NCBI GenBank assembly: GCA_025056745.1
Contig: JANWVQ010000018.1
Span: 1-64,000 of the forward strand
DNA: 64,000 nucleotides
Direction of reading: 5' to 3'
Source of the DNA: Ignavibacterium sp.
Lineage (GTDB): Bacteria; Bacteroidota; Ignavibacteria; Ignavibacteriales; Ignavibacteriaceae
The notes below the pieces were generated by a model that was not told the origin of the DNA, searched no databases, and saw nothing but the letters and a program-made list of their open reading frames with translations. The translations under genes and the position numbers were made by a program. Of the stretch, positions 11,671 through 18,259 are shown piece after piece. The number at the start of each line of letters is the position of its first letter. The stretch's first letter is position 1.

Positions 11671-14607
11671 TCATAGCGTCCAAAATAGAGAGGCATAAAG
11701 AGATAAGAATCTATATGCAACTTCATCTCTACTTGTCTTTCCAGCTAAGCCATAAATATAAAGTTGTAAGTTATCTCTCAGATTATATTTAAATGATAAT
11801 CCCCCTTGCATAATAATAAAATCATTTAATGGCACATAACCCAACTTACCAATGGCTTTGAATTCAGTTGTTGAGTCCTTTATTACATACCAATCAGCCC
11901 AGATTGAATGAGATTCGAACTCTCGTGGCGTGTAATACAAATTAGAGCGATATCTAAAGTTTTGATAATGATATTCATATCCAGCTAAAACGTTTTCTGT
12001 AAAGTATCTTCCTATTCTGAACTGAAAATCATTACCCTTATTTTTTCCATAAGTCAATTCATTTCTAAAATATAGGTCAGTTATAGGAGGAATTATTGTA
12101 AATTCCGGTTTGACTTCAACATATTGAAAGTGGCTATATACATATACACCAAAATCAAAATTATATTCGCCTTCAAGTCTATAAATAGATGTGGGGAATC
12201 TGTTCCATAGCAGATAAGGTGAATATAATAACAATGAGCCATCAGCATAATTATAAATTCCTGCGACATAGAATTTATTTTTTTCATCATATCTTAAAAA
12301 AGCATCTCTTGCGGGTTTTCTTAAATAACCGCCAATGGTCGTTCGGCCTAATCCTACCCCACCAGATAATTTACTCTTGTAATTGAAATAAAGATGGCCT
12401 TTGAATGTGTTGAAATCCAAATCGCCATTTACACTTGTGAAAATGTTTGTTCTATAAAATGAGATCCCTGCAGAAAAAATTGAAATCAATCCAACTTCAA
12501 CTCTTCCACCATAATTCAAGAAATTAAATCCAATATTATCAGTATAAAAAGCAATCGAAGGTGAGATACCAACATAGCTCAGTAAAGTTTGAAATAAAGA
12601 AGATGAACTTCCTCTTGGTAACCATTTATATCTCATTTTAACTAAAGAAACTTGAGCAGTATCTAACTCCCATTCCAATAACTTGTCATATATTTTCTCA
12701 GCTTTATCCGCATCGCCGTATAGTGCATAAGAATCACCTAAGTAAAGATTTGCTTCAAAGTTATCAGGTTCTTTTTTAACTAAATCCTCGAAAGCTTTCA
12801 CAGCACTTATAGAATCACGCATTGAATAATAAACTTTGGCTCTTTGAAGTTCAGCATCGAAATAATCGCCTTGCGCTAATGCATTGTTGTATGCTTCAAT
12901 AGCTTTGTCATATTGCTCTGCACAGTATAGAATATCTCCAAATTCTTTATAAAATAGAATGCTTGGTTCGACTCTTTGTTTATATTCCTCGTAGTATTGG
13001 ATAGCATTTAGACAGTCACCAGCTAATGCTAATTGACGTCCTTGTTCGAGTATTTTATAATTTTCTTCTTCTTCAGCTCTTAACTTTAAAAGATCTATGT
13101 TTGATTGCAAAGCAGCTATGTCTGGATTTGCTGGTTCCAAAACTACGGCTCTGTCCACGAAAGTCTGGGCTTCATCAAATCGTTTTTGATAAGCTCTTAA
13201 GGTTCCCATAGAAATAAGTGCAGGAACATACTTTGGTCTAACTCTTAAAACATTAGTCAAATATTCATCAGCTAAATCTAAATCTCTATCAGTCCAAATT
13301 GATAGTTGTGCTCTGAACATTTGATAATCTATGTTTCCAGGATATTGTTTCAAAAGTTCATCCATAATTTCGATTGATTTATCAAAATCTCTATCCCAAG
13401 CCAAATAACGGGCATAGTTAAATTTCAATTCAGGATCATTGTCGTTAGGAACTAATTCATAATATTTTTCAATAACACTTATTGCATTTATATAATCTTC
13501 CTGATAAGCATAATATTGCGATGCAATCTTGACGGCATTAATATCAGTAGGATTGCTTTCCAAGGTCTTCTTAGCTTGATCAATTTTTTGTTGATAAATT
13601 TTATCTCTATAATCATTCACATAATTCCAGTTATCATCAAATCGTTTTGTGCCTTTATATTCTTGTCTTAAGACCTGTAACTGTTGATAAGCCTCTTCTA
13701 ATCTTTCTTCTTTTATTAATTCTTCAACTAGCTTGAATCGAGCTTCATCATTTTGAGGATCATTACGGAGAAGTCTGTAATAATAATCAATCGCATAAAC
13801 ACGCTCTTTTGGAATTAAATCTTGAGCGCGTCTTTTTGTTGTATCATTTACCTGATAAATCAATCCTTTCCCTCGAACAAGATCTAAACCATCGAGAGCT
13901 TCTTTGAAAAATGGTCTTAATTCAAGTGCTTTGAGGAATGCCTGTTCAGCAAGCTTATTTTTTCCTAACCAATGTAAAAAGTATCCATAACGAGACCAAA
14001 GTCTGTGATCAGTCGGATACTTTTCAGTGTATTTTTTAAGCCAAGGTTCACCTTTTTGAATATGATTATTTTTAGCAAGAATCTCTGTATATCGGATTAA
14101 TTCATCTGCTGAAGGATCTTCTCGCTTTAAATATTCATCATACCATTTTTCAGCTTCAAGCCATTCGCCTAATCTTTTGTAATTTTTCCCAATCTCAAGG
14201 TAGTTTTTGGGTACTGCAGGATTAATTGCTATTTCCCGTTTATAGCCTTCAATTGAATTGTAAATTTGAGTATACCATTTATCAGTAACCCGAGAAAGAT
14301 TTTGTTGAATTTCTTTATTGTTTGGAGCGATTTTTAATGCAGTGCGAAGGTCATAAACAGCCATTTCAAAATTACCACGATTTTCATAACAAAGAGCTCT
14401 CAGGTTAAGCCCATCAGCATTTTGAGGATTTGCAGATATGAATCTATTCAAAGTCTCAATAGCTTCTCCATATCTTCCCGCTTTCATCAACTCTTGGGCT
14501 TTTGCCTTTAGATCTTCACTTGGCCTATTTTGTGAATAGATATCGGAATAGAAAACTGATAATATTAAAAAAATTATAAGCAATATTTTCATCATATTAT
14601 TTCTCAT
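11671..14607 (-). CDS. Tetratricopeptide-repeat protein with C-terminal outer-membrane beta-barrel (YaiO/PgaA-like architecture)
   Basis: Signal peptide, multiple TPRs, then about 300 aa of alternating beta-strands ending in aromatic residues (LSLYASLFWTL). Confidence 0.75.
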   Translation of the reverse strand: MRNNMMKILLIIFLILSVFYSDIYSQNRPSEDLKAKAQELMKAGRYGEAIETLNRFISANPQNADGLNLRALCYENRGNFEMAVYDLRTALKIAPNNKEIQQNLSRVTDKWYTQIYNSIEGYKREIAINPAVPKNYLEIGKNYKRLGEWLEAEKWYDEYLKREDPSADELIRYTEILAKNNHIQKGEPWLKKYTEKYPTDHRLWSRYGYFLHWLGKNKLAEQAFLKALELRPFFKEALDGLDLVRGKGLIYQVNDTTKRRAQDLIPKERVYAIDYYYRLLRNDPQNDEARFKLVEELIKEERLEEAYQQLQVLRQEYKGTKRFDDNWNYVNDYRDKIYQQKIDQAKKTLESNPTDINAVKIASQYYAYQEDYINAISVIEKYYELVPNDNDPELKFNYARYLAWDRDFDKSIEIMDELLKQYPGNIDYQMFRAQLSIWTDRDLDLADEYLTNVLRVRPKYVPALISMGTLRAYQKRFDEAQTFVDRAVVLEPANPDIAALQSNIDLLKLRAEEEENYKILEQGRQLALAGDCLNAIQYYEEYKQRVEPSILFYKEFGDILYCAEQYDKAIEAYNNALAQGDYFDAELQRAKVYYSMRDSISAVKAFEDLVKKEPDNFEANLYLGDSYALYGDADKAEKIYDKLLEWELDTAQVSLVKMRYKWLPRGSSSSLFQTLLSYVGISPSIAFYTDNIGFNFLNYGGRVEVGLISIFSAGISFYRTNIFTSVNGDLDFNTFKGHLYFNYKSKLSGGVGLGRTTIGGYLRKPARDAFLRYDEKNKFYVAGIYNYADGSLLLYSPYLLWNRFPTSIYRLEGEYNFDFGVYVYSHFQYVEVKPEFTIIPPITDLYFRNELTYGKNKGNDFQFRIGRYFTENVLAGYEYHYQNFRYRSNLYYTPREFESHSIWADWYVIKDSTTEFKAIGKLGYVPLNDFIIMQGGLSFKYNLRDNLQLYIYGLAGKTSRDEVAYRFLSLYASLFWTL

Positions 14608-14629
14608 AAAAATTTTATCATCTCAAAAC

Positions 14630-16093
14630 TTAAAATTGGAAATAAATAAATGGATGAACGTCCAATGCTTTAAATTGAACAACAATCCAGATCACTATAG
14701 TTATTATTATTGCCTGTGATATCAATGATGCATTGGATATTTTTTCAGTTACAAAATCTTCTAACTTTTTAGGCGTAAAATGGCTTAAAAATCCTATTAC
14801 CATCAATGCAAAAACAATCGAATAACCATTAATAAATTGTAAAAAAACTTCTGGTTTGAAATAATAAAAAATTTGATTAACCATATCAATTCCGTGTTGC
14901 GTCGATTGAGCTCTAAAGAAGATCATTGATATAGCCCAAATATGAAAAGTAACTATCGCTCCAAACAATTTCAGTATTTTAGATTTTTCTAATTTTTCTG
15001 GGAGATTGGTTATTCTTTCAAAAGCTAAAGCTGTTCCGTGAATTCCGCCCCAAACTACGAAATTCCAACTCGCTCCGTGCCAAAGTCCACCTAACAACAT
15101 AGTTAGCATTAGATTGATATAGGTTCTTACTTTTCCAAGTCTATTACCGCCTAAAGAGATATACAAATAATCTCTTAGCCAAGATGATAGAGAAAGATGC
15201 CATCTTCTCCAGAACTCAGTTATTGTAACTGCTTTATAAGGGGAATTGAAATTCATAGGCAACTTAAATCCAAGTAACAATGCAAGTCCAATTGCCATAT
15301 CAGAATAGCCTGAAAAATCACAATATATTTGAAGACAATATCCATAGAGTGCTAACAAATTCTCTACACCGGTATATCTTGCTGGCCAATCGAAAACTCT
15401 ATCAACGAAATTGATACTTATATAATCAGCTATAACTGCTTTTTTTAATAATCCAGCAATAATCAGGAATAAAGCTTTACCTATATCAGCTTTTGTTATT
15501 AAAGGCCTGTTATGTATTTGTGGTAAGAAATCTGCAGCTCTTACAATTGGCCCTGCTACAAGTTGCGGAAAGAATGAAACGAAGAATAAAAAGTCTGTGA
15601 AATTTCTTTCAGGAGTCAATTTATTTCTGTAAATATCGATTGTATAACTCATCGATTGAAAAGTGAAAAAAGATACTCCAACAGGTAGGAAGATATCTTG
15701 CAATGGAATATTAGATGAGAAAAGAGCATTAACATTGTTTATAAAGAAGTTAGTGTATTTGAAATATCCAAGTATTCCAAGATTTGCAATCAGACTCAGT
15801 ATTAGAAACAATTTTCGCTTGAACTTTAAATTAGTATTATGAATTACAATTCCAGCGATATAGTCTATCAAGGAACTGATTATTACTAGAATAAAAAATA
15901 TTCCACTCGATTTGTAGTAAAAATAAATCGAGCTTATCGTCAAAAAGATTATTTTCGCTCTTTTATAATTAGTAAAAAGCTTGTTAAATATTAAAACAAA
16001 CAAAAAGAAATAAAGGAAAAAACCCGAATTGAATAAAAGCGGTGCTTGCGGGTTATATGAAAGAATCTCTATTAGTTTCTCAACAAAATTCAT
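14630..16093 (-). CDS. MBOAT family O-acyltransferase (AlgI-like)
   Basis: Polytopic; PVGVSFFTFQSMSYTIDIYR, FFPQLVAGPIVRA, CDFSGYSDMAIGLALLLGF, TEFWRRWHLSLSSWLRDYLYI, LLGGLWHGASWNFVVWG. Confidence 0.95.
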   Translation of the reverse strand: MNFVEKLIEILSYNPQAPLLFNSGFFLYFFLFVLIFNKLFTNYKRAKIIFLTISSIYFYYKSSGIFFILVIISSLIDYIAGIVIHNTNLKFKRKLFLILSLIANLGILGYFKYTNFFINNVNALFSSNIPLQDIFLPVGVSFFTFQSMSYTIDIYRNKLTPERNFTDFLFFVSFFPQLVAGPIVRAADFLPQIHNRPLITKADIGKALFLIIAGLLKKAVIADYISINFVDRVFDWPARYTGVENLLALYGYCLQIYCDFSGYSDMAIGLALLLGFKLPMNFNSPYKAVTITEFWRRWHLSLSSWLRDYLYISLGGNRLGKVRTYINLMLTMLLGGLWHGASWNFVVWGGIHGTALAFERITNLPEKLEKSKILKLFGAIVTFHIWAISMIFFRAQSTQHGIDMVNQIFYYFKPEVFLQFINGYSIVFALMVIGFLSHFTPKKLEDFVTEKISNASLISQAIIITIVIWIVVQFKALDVHPFIYFQF

Positions 16094-16097
16094 AGGC

Positions 16098-17543
16098 TTA
16101 TTTTAATTTTGTATAGGCCTGAATGAGAGATTCAGCGAGGAGACTTGCCAATTTCTTTGCACCTCTTTCGTTAAAGTGTATGTAATCTTTCGCAGCTAAT
16201 GGTGGATTTGCATCAACCCAGTTGGACATCGAATTTTCTCCTCCCATAACTTCAAAGAAATTCCAAAAGGCAATATTCGTAGCCTTAGCTATATTTTTTT
16301 GAGCATCTAAAAGTTCTTTAACTAAAGGATCTGTTTTCATTCCTTTATCTTGAACACTAATCATCAAAAAGGAAGTATTTGGAAGGATTTTTTTAAGATT
16401 TTCAATTACATTTATCATTGATTTTTCGTAATTAGTAAAATCACCTCTTGCAGCGCCAAGTGCATTCAAACCAAACTCAAAAATAACAAGCTTATAGTTC
16501 ATCTTACTTGAAAATTCCTTCACCAGATCTTCATCAAATTTATTTAAGTCAACTCCAGAGTTTCCTCTCATTGCAAAATTATCCACATAAATTCCATTTC
16601 CATTTTCTAAACTTACTCCAAAAACCTGCGCTTGGTCTTCAAGAGGAAATTCTATTCTTACAGAGTTTGCTGGTTTGGTTAAATTTATAGTAAGAATGTT
16701 TAACGATTTACCAGGAATTAGTTTTTCACTTCTCTTTTCGTTCCCATTGAAAACAAAATTTACATTTGAAGGTTTTGCATTTGTGTAAAGTAATTTAACT
16801 GTAGAAAAATTTTTAAGATATTTGTAAAGATGAGGAGTTGAATATTCAACCCAGCTTCCTGCTTTTGGAACAAATGTTTCTCCATTAAAGCCAATTGGAA
16901 ATCTATTTGGATTTCCTGAATAAACTGTTCCAACCTTCCAATCTGAAGAGAATGATATTTTTGTTGATTGTCTGAAATTAACATCTTGAGTTGTTATTGG
17001 AAGCAATCCAACGCCGTTCCCACCAAAGCGATTTTGTAATAATTCACGAAAATCCGCTGTTACTAAATCTCCTTCAATCATTGAATCACCGAAATGAGCA
17101 ATTCGTACAACTTCACTTTTAGTTTTATTCAGGCCATCAAAGAAGAATTTTAATTGTTGAACGTTACCAACGATTGGTTGATTTTTCAGAACTACCTTAT
17201 TGCCTTTAACGAAAATTGTATCATTATTTGCATCTGATAAGTTTTTAGCTAAAAACAAATTAAAAATAGAAGCTTTGATTTTTTCTTTTAGTTGTAAACC
17301 ATCAATTGAATCATTGCTGTTTGGATTTAAATCATACTTCGGTTTGAAAAAGTCATCTTCTTCAATTGGTTTTTCGGGTTTTATTTCAGGTTTGGGATTT
17401 TCCTTGAAGTCAGAGAAAATGTCAACATTTTTAATTTTAAATCCTGATAAATCAAATTGAAATGGGATGAATGAAAGAATTGCTACGAATAAAAAAACTG
17501 TAGCGGTTAGATAAAGCGGGTAATCATCAACATTTTTTTTCAT
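16098..17543 (-). CDS. SGNH/GDSL hydrolase family protein, membrane-anchored
   Basis: N-terminal TM; VRIAHFGDSMIEGD (block I) and DYIHFNERGAKKLA (D-x-x-H block); adjacent to MBOAT. Confidence 0.8.
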   Translation of the reverse strand: MKKNVDDYPLYLTATVFLFVAILSFIPFQFDLSGFKIKNVDIFSDFKENPKPEIKPEKPIEEDDFFKPKYDLNPNSNDSIDGLQLKEKIKASIFNLFLAKNLSDANNDTIFVKGNKVVLKNQPIVGNVQQLKFFFDGLNKTKSEVVRIAHFGDSMIEGDLVTADFRELLQNRFGGNGVGLLPITTQDVNFRQSTKISFSSDWKVGTVYSGNPNRFPIGFNGETFVPKAGSWVEYSTPHLYKYLKNFSTVKLLYTNAKPSNVNFVFNGNEKRSEKLIPGKSLNILTINLTKPANSVRIEFPLEDQAQVFGVSLENGNGIYVDNFAMRGNSGVDLNKFDEDLVKEFSSKMNYKLVIFEFGLNALGAARGDFTNYEKSMINVIENLKKILPNTSFLMISVQDKGMKTDPLVKELLDAQKNIAKATNIAFWNFFEVMGGENSMSNWVDANPPLAAKDYIHFNERGAKKLASLLAESLIQAYTKLK

Positions 17544-17554
17544 TTTTTTTGCCT

Positions 17555-18259
17555 TTATAAATTTAATTGTTTAAGAGCTTTTTCAACTTCTTCCCCCCAT
17601 ATTTTGTAACCTCTAGCATTTAAATGTAATCCATCGTAGGTAAAATCTTTATTTAAGAAGTTTCCATCTTTTAATTTAGAATTTATATCCAAAAATAATA
17701 TTTTATTATTAAAAGCGAAATTTTTAAGTAATGAGTTTAATTTATCTATCTCTTTATTTCTTCCCAGATTAACTTCACTTGGTTTTAAATTTGGATTGTT
17801 ATTTCGTAACCATTCCTCTCCCCAATTCTCAGCAGCATAAATTGTTGATTGTATTACGACCTTTATATTTCTGGATAGGAGTGAAGCTATAATTTCTTGA
17901 TAAGTTTTGAAAATTTCATCAACTGAAGTCCAATTGTAAATATCATTAACTCCACCCATAATAAAAACTACTTTTGGATTTAACTTAAAAATGTAATCAA
18001 GTCTTTTTTTATAACCCGCTAAAACATCAGATGGAATTCCTCTATTGACCACATCACTTCTACCTAATAGTTCATTCCAATCAACTCCTTTTGTTAAAGA
18101 ATTTCCCAACATAACAATGTTTGCTGACTTGGTTTTGTAAATATTATACAACTCGATTTGTTGCTTGTAATTTGGATTTTCTTGTGAGAAGTGATTTTCA
18201 ATCATAAGGAAAATGATTAATAATATTTTGATGAACAATTTCAATTTTATTTGAAACAT
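17555..18259 (-). CDS. SGNH/GDSL hydrolase
   Basis: IVMLGNSLTKGVDW, VVFIMGGVNDIYN, TYDGLHLNARGYKIW; signal peptide. Confidence 0.85.
   Translation of the reverse strand: MFQIKLKLFIKILLIIFLMIENHFSQENPNYKQQIELYNIYKTKSANIVMLGNSLTKGVDWNELLGRSDVVNRGIPSDVLAGYKKRLDYIFKLNPKVVFIMGGVNDIYNWTSVDEIFKTYQEIIASLLSRNIKVVIQSTIYAAENWGEEWLRNNNPNLKPSEVNLGRNKEIDKLNSLLKNFAFNNKILFLDINSKLKDGNFLNKDFTYDGLHLNARGYKIWGEEVEKALKQLNL

What the first reader, a model, noticed from the sequence alone, without database searches (positions are those of the whole stretch)
11671..18259. SGNH-SGNH-MBOAT-TPR/beta-barrel operon: possible acylated exopolysaccharide modification/export module without a synthase
Seen: four minus-strand genes with 4-22 nt gaps encoding two SGNH hydrolases, an AlgI-like MBOAT, and a 978-aa TPR protein ending in a barrel. 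Established: in alginate, cellulose and PNAG systems, MBOAT plus SGNH proteins O-acetylate the polymer, and TPR plus beta-barrel proteins (AlgK/AlgE, BcsC, PgaA) export it. Inference: this is a stand-alone periplasmic acylation plus outer-membrane export unit. The missing glycosyltransferase suggests an unusual substrate (S-layer, LPS or surface glycan) or a synthase elsewhere.
Basis: partly seen in the sequence, partly recalled or inferred. Interest (0 to 1): 0.6.

Follow-up and report, generated by a model that had tools for sequence, protein, structure and literature searches.

The report
Sugar-polymer acylation and export operon
Four neighbouring genes in an Ignavibacterium-like bacterium most likely decorate a secreted sugar polymer with acyl groups and pass it through the outer membrane, while the enzyme that makes the polymer sits elsewhere in the same genome; related bacteria feed the same machinery through a dedicated acyl carrier protein, a combination I did not find described.

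Summary
The four minus-strand genes are real and intact. AlphaFold gives the 978-aa protein a TPR superhelix and 16 consecutive barrel strands. The MBOAT keeps both histidines (H299, H339) and ends in FIYFQF, the FXYXXF acyl-shuttle motif of PatA/DltX. Both SGNH proteins keep their catalytic residues; the larger has the fold of the peptidoglycan esterase Ape1.

"Without a synthase" is wrong at genome level. Another contig of the same genome carries GH9–KaiC-like ATPase–processive GT2–further genes–histidine kinase. Nearly all relatives have a TPR/barrel paralogue between KaiC and GT2; in this genome and two close relatives that slot is empty, and the window's TPR/barrel is the only copy. Across 396 genomes of the phylum the TPR/barrel and GT2 families occur together in 48, and singly in two each.

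Most relatives also carry a fatty-acyl-AMP ligase and an acyl carrier protein before the MBOAT: a Dlt/Pat hybrid I did not find described. The window belongs to the branch without them.

Main rival: peptidoglycan O-acetylation, because of the Ape1 fold and because wider Bacteroidota have SGNH–SGNH–MBOAT sets without the exporter, some near peptidoglycan genes. Polymer, acyl group and coupling are inferred.

The parts
17555..18259 (-). SGNH_B: small secreted SGNH/GDSL esterase-like protein (234 aa), probable Sec signal; S in LGNS, G in NRG, N in GGVND, D/H in DGLH all present
   Evidence: (nearest solved: Bacteroides-type sialate O-acetylesterase/lysophospholipase L1, 3e-23)
16098..17543 (-). 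SGNH_A: membrane-anchored Ape1-like SGNH protein (481 aa): one N-terminal TM, variable linker, SGNH core with an inserted beta-rich domain
17082..17084 (-). SGNH_A catalytic Ser154 (GDSMIEGD), invariant in 24 relatives
16176..16187 (-). SGNH_A catalytic Asp453 and His456 (DYIH), invariant
14630..16093 (-). MBOAT acyltransferase (487 aa), the only MBOAT found in the genome; branch without ligase/ACP
15197..15199 (-). MBOAT His299 (EFWRRWH), invariant in both MBOAT branches
15077..15079 (-). MBOAT His339 (GLWHG), invariant, the universal MBOAT histidine
14633..14650 (-). C-terminal hexapeptide FIYFQF = FXYXXF acyl-shuttle motif (Tyr484)
   Evidence: motif defined in PMC12148441
11671..14607 (-). 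TPR/beta-barrel outer-membrane exporter (978 aa), the only member of its family in this genome
12628..14523 (-). periplasmic TPR superhelix (residues 29-660)
11677..12573 (-). 16 predicted consecutive beta-strands forming the C-terminal barrel (residues 679-977)

Best explanation
The operon is the periplasmic acylation and outer-membrane export half of a synthase-dependent exopolysaccharide system whose synthase operon lies elsewhere in the genome (contig C42: GH9 lipoprotein glycanase, KaiC-like ATPase, GT2 synthase, a small membrane protein, a 630-aa membrane-anchored periplasmic protein, an fn3-domain lipoprotein, hybrid kinase). Proposed steps: (1) the GT2 polymerises a beta-linked glycan and passes it through the inner membrane; (2) the MBOAT takes an acyl group, probably acetyl from acetyl-CoA, and loads it onto Tyr484 of its C-terminal FIYFQF tail; (3) an SGNH protein, probably membrane-anchored SGNH_A, takes it on its serine and transfers it to the polymer, while the other SGNH either helps or removes acyl groups; (4) the TPR superhelix receives the polymer and the 16-strand barrel lets it out. 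In this species group the MBOAT-linked TPR/barrel has taken the place of the lost synthase-linked one. Shown: gene content, catalytic and shuttle motifs, predicted barrel, synthase in the same genome, empty slot, co-occurrence across the phylum. Inferred: the chemistry, donor, polymer identity and the physical coupling of the two operons.
For: Barrel and TPR predicted with confidence. FXYXXF tail and invariant histidines in the MBOAT (mechanism in PMC12148441). The own-genome GT2 has DGS, DAD, ED and QRYRW motifs, best NCBIfam match PgaC/IcaA at 212 bits, below its cut-off of 422. The GH9 keeps its domain and a lipobox. KaiC and GT2 are 23 nt apart in this genome and also adjacent in G001 and G002, whereas a TPR/barrel sits between them in nearly all others, and the window copy is the only one in the genome. 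Co-occurrence over 396 phylum genomes: both 48, TPR only 2, GT2 only 2, neither 344, Fisher 7e-57 without correction for relatedness; in the distant families the two genes are adjacent in 10 of 11 genomes. The acyl module and synthase operon lie together on one strand in G011, G012, G013 and G014, and partly in G024 and G032. A short SGNH_A sits between TPR/barrel and GT2 in 14 loci, and these SGNH_A nest among Ignavibacteriales SGNH_A. In the 41-genome set all 31 genomes with SGNH_A also have TPR/barrel and GT2.
Against: The two operons are on different contigs, so nothing shows co-expression. SGNH_A is nearest in fold to a peptidoglycan esterase and both SGNHs keep the canonical block II glycine, which PatB lacks, so which one is the transferase is unsettled. 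The wider SGNH_A/MBOAT family occurs without any TPR/barrel. Peptidoglycan-type genes (M23, NlpC/P60) are common neighbours in relatives. G366 has an intact TPR/barrel and SGNH_A but no GT2 orthologue.
Confidence: 0.6

Rival explanations
1. Peptidoglycan O-acetylation set: MBOAT = PatA-like, SGNH_A = Ape1-like esterase, SGNH_B = second SGNH; the TPR/barrel is a separate passenger of the operon.
For: SGNH_A folds like Ape1 (4k3u, TM 0.81 by target length; C. jejuni Ape1 8gld/8gkd). Neisseria/Campylobacter use the same count of genes, PatA+PatB+Ape1 (PMC12148441). In other Bacteroidota the same SGNH-SGNH-MBOAT set has no TPR/barrel; there a LysM domain sits in the second SGNH of L220/L221 and a LysM+SLT lytic transglycosylase is next door in L227/L233. 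NlpC/P60, MLE or M23 genes lie beside the module in some relatives.
Against: The TPR/barrel follows the MBOAT in many relatives and peptidoglycan needs no outer-membrane exporter. Ignavibacteriales SGNH_A also sits inside the GT2 operon between exporter and synthase (14 loci). No PatB-type SGNH with the altered block II was seen; SGNH_B is not PatB-like by sequence. LysM is absent from most of the second SGNHs tested (9 of 10 lack it). G001 carries, besides the window-type module, a second set that groups with the Bacteroidota type (L043), which argues for different jobs.
Confidence: 0.2
2. The module acylates and exports a different polymer from that of the C42 synthase (another GT2 or a Wzy-type glycan); the MBOAT-linked TPR/barrel clade has its own partner.
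For: MBOAT-linked and GT2-linked TPR/barrels are separate clades and coexist in many f2 genomes such as G027, G029, G038; G366 has the former without the GT2 orthologue; other GT2s exist in the genome.
Against: In G000-G002 the GT2-linked copy is gone while the GT2 operon is otherwise kept, leaving only the window copy to serve it.
Confidence: 0.15
3. The SGNH-MBOAT genes act on another envelope target such as LPS or a surface glycoprotein, and the barrel is a protein- or lipoprotein-handling TPR-barrel (Slam-like).
For: Weak sub-threshold Pfam match of the TPR part to Slam TPRs.
Against: Barrel has 16 strands and the family tracks a polysaccharide synthase; the Slam match is short and below cut-off.
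Confidence: 0.05

Closest known systems
PatA/PatB/Ape1 peptidoglycan O-acetylation (Neisseria, Campylobacter)
   Same: MBOAT with C-terminal FXYXXF tail, two SGNH proteins, one of them with the Ape1 fold
   Different: operon continues into a TPR/barrel exporter; SGNH_B is a small secreted protein, not PatB; both SGNHs keep the block II Gly
Alginate AlgI/J/X with AlgK/E, and Wss acetylated cellulose (WssF-I with BcsC-type export)
   Same: MBOAT + SGNH acylation beside a TPR/barrel export route
   Different: SGNH_A resembles Ape1 rather than AlgJ/AlgX; the synthase is in another operon; no PilZ protein found in the genome
PgaABCD (PNAG) and BcsC cellulose exporters
   Same: one protein with TPR superhelix and 16-strand barrel; GT2 nearest to PgaC; small membrane protein next to it
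   Different: GH9 in place of GH8 or PgaB; KaiC-like ATPase; far below the PgaA, BcsC and PgaC family cut-offs
DltABCDX D-alanylation
   Same: relatives of the window have AMP ligase + carrier protein + MBOAT + SGNH; DltB is the nearest model of the MBOAT
   Different: ligase is of the fatty-acyl-AMP type, the shuttle motif is fused to the MBOAT (no DltX needed), Gram-negative, and the window itself lacks ligase and carrier

Membership tests
Bacterial MBOAT-SGNH acyltransferase systems | MBOAT with universal catalytic His | tested here: met
   H339 (and H299) invariant
Bacterial MBOAT-SGNH acyltransferase systems | acyl-shuttle hexapeptide FXYXXF at the MBOAT C-terminus or on DltX | tested here: met
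   FIYFQF at residues 482-487; PMC12148441
Bacterial MBOAT-SGNH acyltransferase systems | SGNH partner with Ser-Asp-His triad | tested here: met
   SGNH_A S154/D453/H456; SGNH_B motifs
Bacterial MBOAT-SGNH acyltransferase systems | acyl transfer to a polymer | not testable with these tools
   needs biochemistry
TPR/16-strand barrel exopolysaccharide exporters (BcsC/PgaA kind) | signal peptide, TPR superhelix and 16-strand C-terminal barrel | tested here: met
   model; N-terminal hydrophobic segment 5-23
TPR/16-strand barrel exopolysaccharide exporters (BcsC/PgaA kind) | fold match of the barrel itself to a solved BcsC/PgaA barrel | tested here: inconclusive
TPR/16-strand barrel exopolysaccharide exporters (BcsC/PgaA kind) | genomic pairing with a processive GT2 synthase | tested here: met
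   family-level pairing; in this genome the pair is split over two contigs
PgaA (TIGR03939) / BcsC (NF008520) proper | score over the curated cut-off | tested here: not met
   69.6 vs 366.65 bits and 35.3 vs 858 bits
PatA/PatB/Ape1 peptidoglycan O-acetylation | Ape1-type SGNH | tested here: met
   fold level
PatA/PatB/Ape1 peptidoglycan O-acetylation | PatB-type SGNH (block II Gly replaced) | tested here: not met
   RGNSG in SGNH_A and NRG in SGNH_B keep glycine; assignment of block II is by my reading of the alignment
PatA/PatB/Ape1 peptidoglycan O-acetylation | acts on peptidoglycan | not testable with these tools
   needs peptidoglycan analysis of a mutant
Dlt system | AMP ligase and carrier protein in the operon | tested here: not met
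   absent in window; no close ligase homologue in the genome; present in the sister branch

The most novel reading that the evidence does not exclude
Ignavibacteriales have a distinct kind of synthase-dependent exopolysaccharide system (GT2 + GH9 + KaiC-like ATPase + TPR/barrel) whose polymer is acylated by an MBOAT-SGNH pair that in one branch is fed by a dedicated fatty-acyl-AMP ligase and acyl carrier protein, so that acyl groups other than acetyl are put on an exported polysaccharide, and in another branch (the window) has a carrier-free donor. In the window's species group the acylation operon's own exporter replaced the synthase's exporter.
Probability: 0.35. Interest if true: 0.72.

Novelty: new variant of a known kind. 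Interest (0 to 1): 0.52.

Why it matters
[quoted passage not shown] The relatives of this operon break that rule: ligase, carrier and a fused FXYXXF tail in one operon. They offer a natural comparison of carrier-fed and carrier-free MBOATs within one order, and a way to learn which polymers can carry longer acyl groups. The empty exporter slot is a clear evolutionary test of how synthase and exporter of an exopolysaccharide recognise each other.

Tried and rejected
Foldseek of the whole TPR/barrel model returned only TPR superhelices of eukaryotic complexes among the 50 best, so it says nothing about the barrel. PilZ/c-di-GMP partner: no PilZ found, one GGDEF protein. Hypothesis that the ligase/ACP pair had only moved elsewhere in this genome: best ligase hit is a 60.9-bit C-terminal match, so rejected; a generic fatty-acid ACP as donor is not excluded. 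A second MBOAT for peptidoglycan in this genome: none. Promoter scan at chance level and terminator scan only mildly above it, unhelpful. Tandem repeats: nothing relevant. Literature searches for MBOAT + SGNH + ACP + exopolysaccharide gave no paper; the library is limited to open papers, so absence is weak evidence.

Full report
What is there. The four ORFs stand at the given coordinates on the minus strand in the order SGNH_B, SGNH_A, MBOAT, TPR/barrel, with gaps of 11, 4 and 22 nt. I use SGNH_B for 17555-18259 and SGNH_A for 16098-17543. Flanks (uvrB and a 117-aa gene on one side, an adenosine-deaminase-like gene and a urocanase-like gene on the other; my reading of the translations) are unrelated in function; the adenosine-deaminase side is conserved in two congeners.

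The proteins. The MBOAT is nearest to DltB models and structures. It keeps H299 and H339, invariant (at least 95%) in both branches of 48 sequences, and ends in FIYFQF. That is the FXYXXF acyl-shuttle motif whose tyrosine is auto-acetylated in PatA (PMC12148441; the N. gonorrhoeae sequence quoted there is FIYANF). SGNH_A has one N-terminal membrane helix, a variable linker and an SGNH core with invariant S154, N360, D453 and H456. By profile it matches Ape1 (8.5e-28), and its AlphaFold model (pLDDT 80.7) is closest to Neisseria Ape1 4k3u and Campylobacter Ape1 8gld/8gkd. SGNH_B is a small secreted SGNH protein with all catalytic blocks. The 978-aa protein folds as TPR superhelix plus 16 consecutive strands (pLDDT 88.5; pTM 0.41, so the arm-to-barrel orientation is loose).

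Relatives. The module recurs in many of the 40 related genomes examined. In most of these, between SGNH_A and MBOAT, there are a ~570-aa AMP-binding ligase of the fatty-acyl-AMP type and a ~77-aa acyl carrier protein with the PGWDSL motif. MBOATs fall into two branches: 33 go with ligase and ACP (two of these have no ligase/ACP in view; one lies at a locus edge) and 15 do not, the branch of the ligase/ACP type having full support. The window belongs to the second branch. Its genome has no good ligase homologue.

The synthase. Asking where the missing glycosyltransferase is gave the clearest result. Relatives have a second TPR/barrel paralogue in an operon GH9 - KaiC-like ATPase - TPR/barrel - (short SGNH_A) - GT2 - small membrane protein - 630-aa anchored protein - fn3 protein - hybrid kinase. 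The window's genome has this operon on contig C42, with the GT2 and the rest, but without the TPR/barrel: KaiC ends at 14918 and GT2 starts at 14942 of L071. G001 and G002 also lack it there. The window copy is the only TPR/barrel of the family in the genome. G004 and G005, of the same genus, keep the TPR/barrel in the GT2 operon and have no SGNH_A match. On the tree of 102 TPR/barrels, GT2-linked and MBOAT-linked copies are the two sides of one fully supported branch, and the window clusters with G038 of another family, as does its MBOAT. I read this as acquisition of the whole acylation-export operon from a Melioribacteraceae-like donor followed by loss of the native exporter; this is inference.

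Strength of the link. Over 396 genomes of the phylum, TPR/barrel (E<=1e-40) and GT2 (E<=1e-170, my cut between orthologues and weaker GT2s) occur together in 48, TPR alone in 2, GT2 alone in 2, neither in 344. Related genomes are not independent, so the Fisher value of 7e-57 is only a rough guide. In ten of eleven genomes from other families the two genes are neighbours by their coordinates; there the match covers the TPR part only. The acyl module adjoins the synthase operon in G011-G014 and partly in G024 and G032. SGNH_A copies inside the GT2 operon form one group within the Ignavibacteriales SGNH_A. The exception G366 has TPR/barrel and SGNH_A without this GT2.

The rival. In other Bacteroidota, SGNH_A-SGNH-MBOAT sets exist without the TPR/barrel (77 of 396 genomes have SGNH_A; none of 26 tested SGNH_A genomes outside Ignavibacteriales has a full TPR/barrel). 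Some of these show peptidoglycan marks: LysM in the second SGNH of L220 and L221, LysM+SLT lytic transglycosylase beside L227 and L233. With the Ape1 fold this suggests that the family's older role may be peptidoglycan O-acetylation and that the Ignavibacteriales put it to use on an exported polymer. For the window I put exopolysaccharide at 0.6 and peptidoglycan at 0.2.

Verdict. As chemistry it is a member of the known MBOAT-SGNH kind; as a system it is a new variant, mainly because of the carrier-fed sister branch and the split, exporter-swapped arrangement. I found no published description in the open library, which is a limited search.

Noticed in passing
L043:1227-4904 (G001): G001 carries a second SGNH-SGNH-MBOAT set whose SGNH_A groups with the Bacteroidota type rather than the window type, so two such modules coexist in one genome.
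   Followed up: partly
L071:16792-18684: The 630-aa protein of the GT2 operon (c10) is membrane-anchored, with an ABC_transp_aux-like stretch and a weak NodB/PdaB-like match; possibly a degenerate PgaB-like deacetylase domain.
   Followed up: no
L071:13638-14918 and relatives: A KaiC-like ATPase is a constant member of the polysaccharide synthase operon; its role there is unknown to me.
   Followed up: no
L171 (G019): G019 has KaiC, a weak c11 match, histidine kinase and then ligase-ACP-MBOAT, but no GT2, TPR/barrel or SGNH_A: apparently a decayed combined locus.
   Followed up: partly
G366:C40: Genome with an intact TPR/barrel and SGNH_A but no GT2 orthologue; its exporter must serve something else or be orphaned.
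   Followed up: no
L050:10252-13217 (G029), L101, L104: Two MBOAT genes in tandem between SGNH_A and the TPR/barrel, without ligase or ACP.
   Followed up: no
L063:3042-5373, L035, L036: NlpC/P60-SH3 plus MR/MLE enolase genes (the make-up of muropeptide recycling YkfC/YkfB, from memory) and two M16 peptidases lie between acyl module and synthase operon in several genomes.
   Followed up: partly
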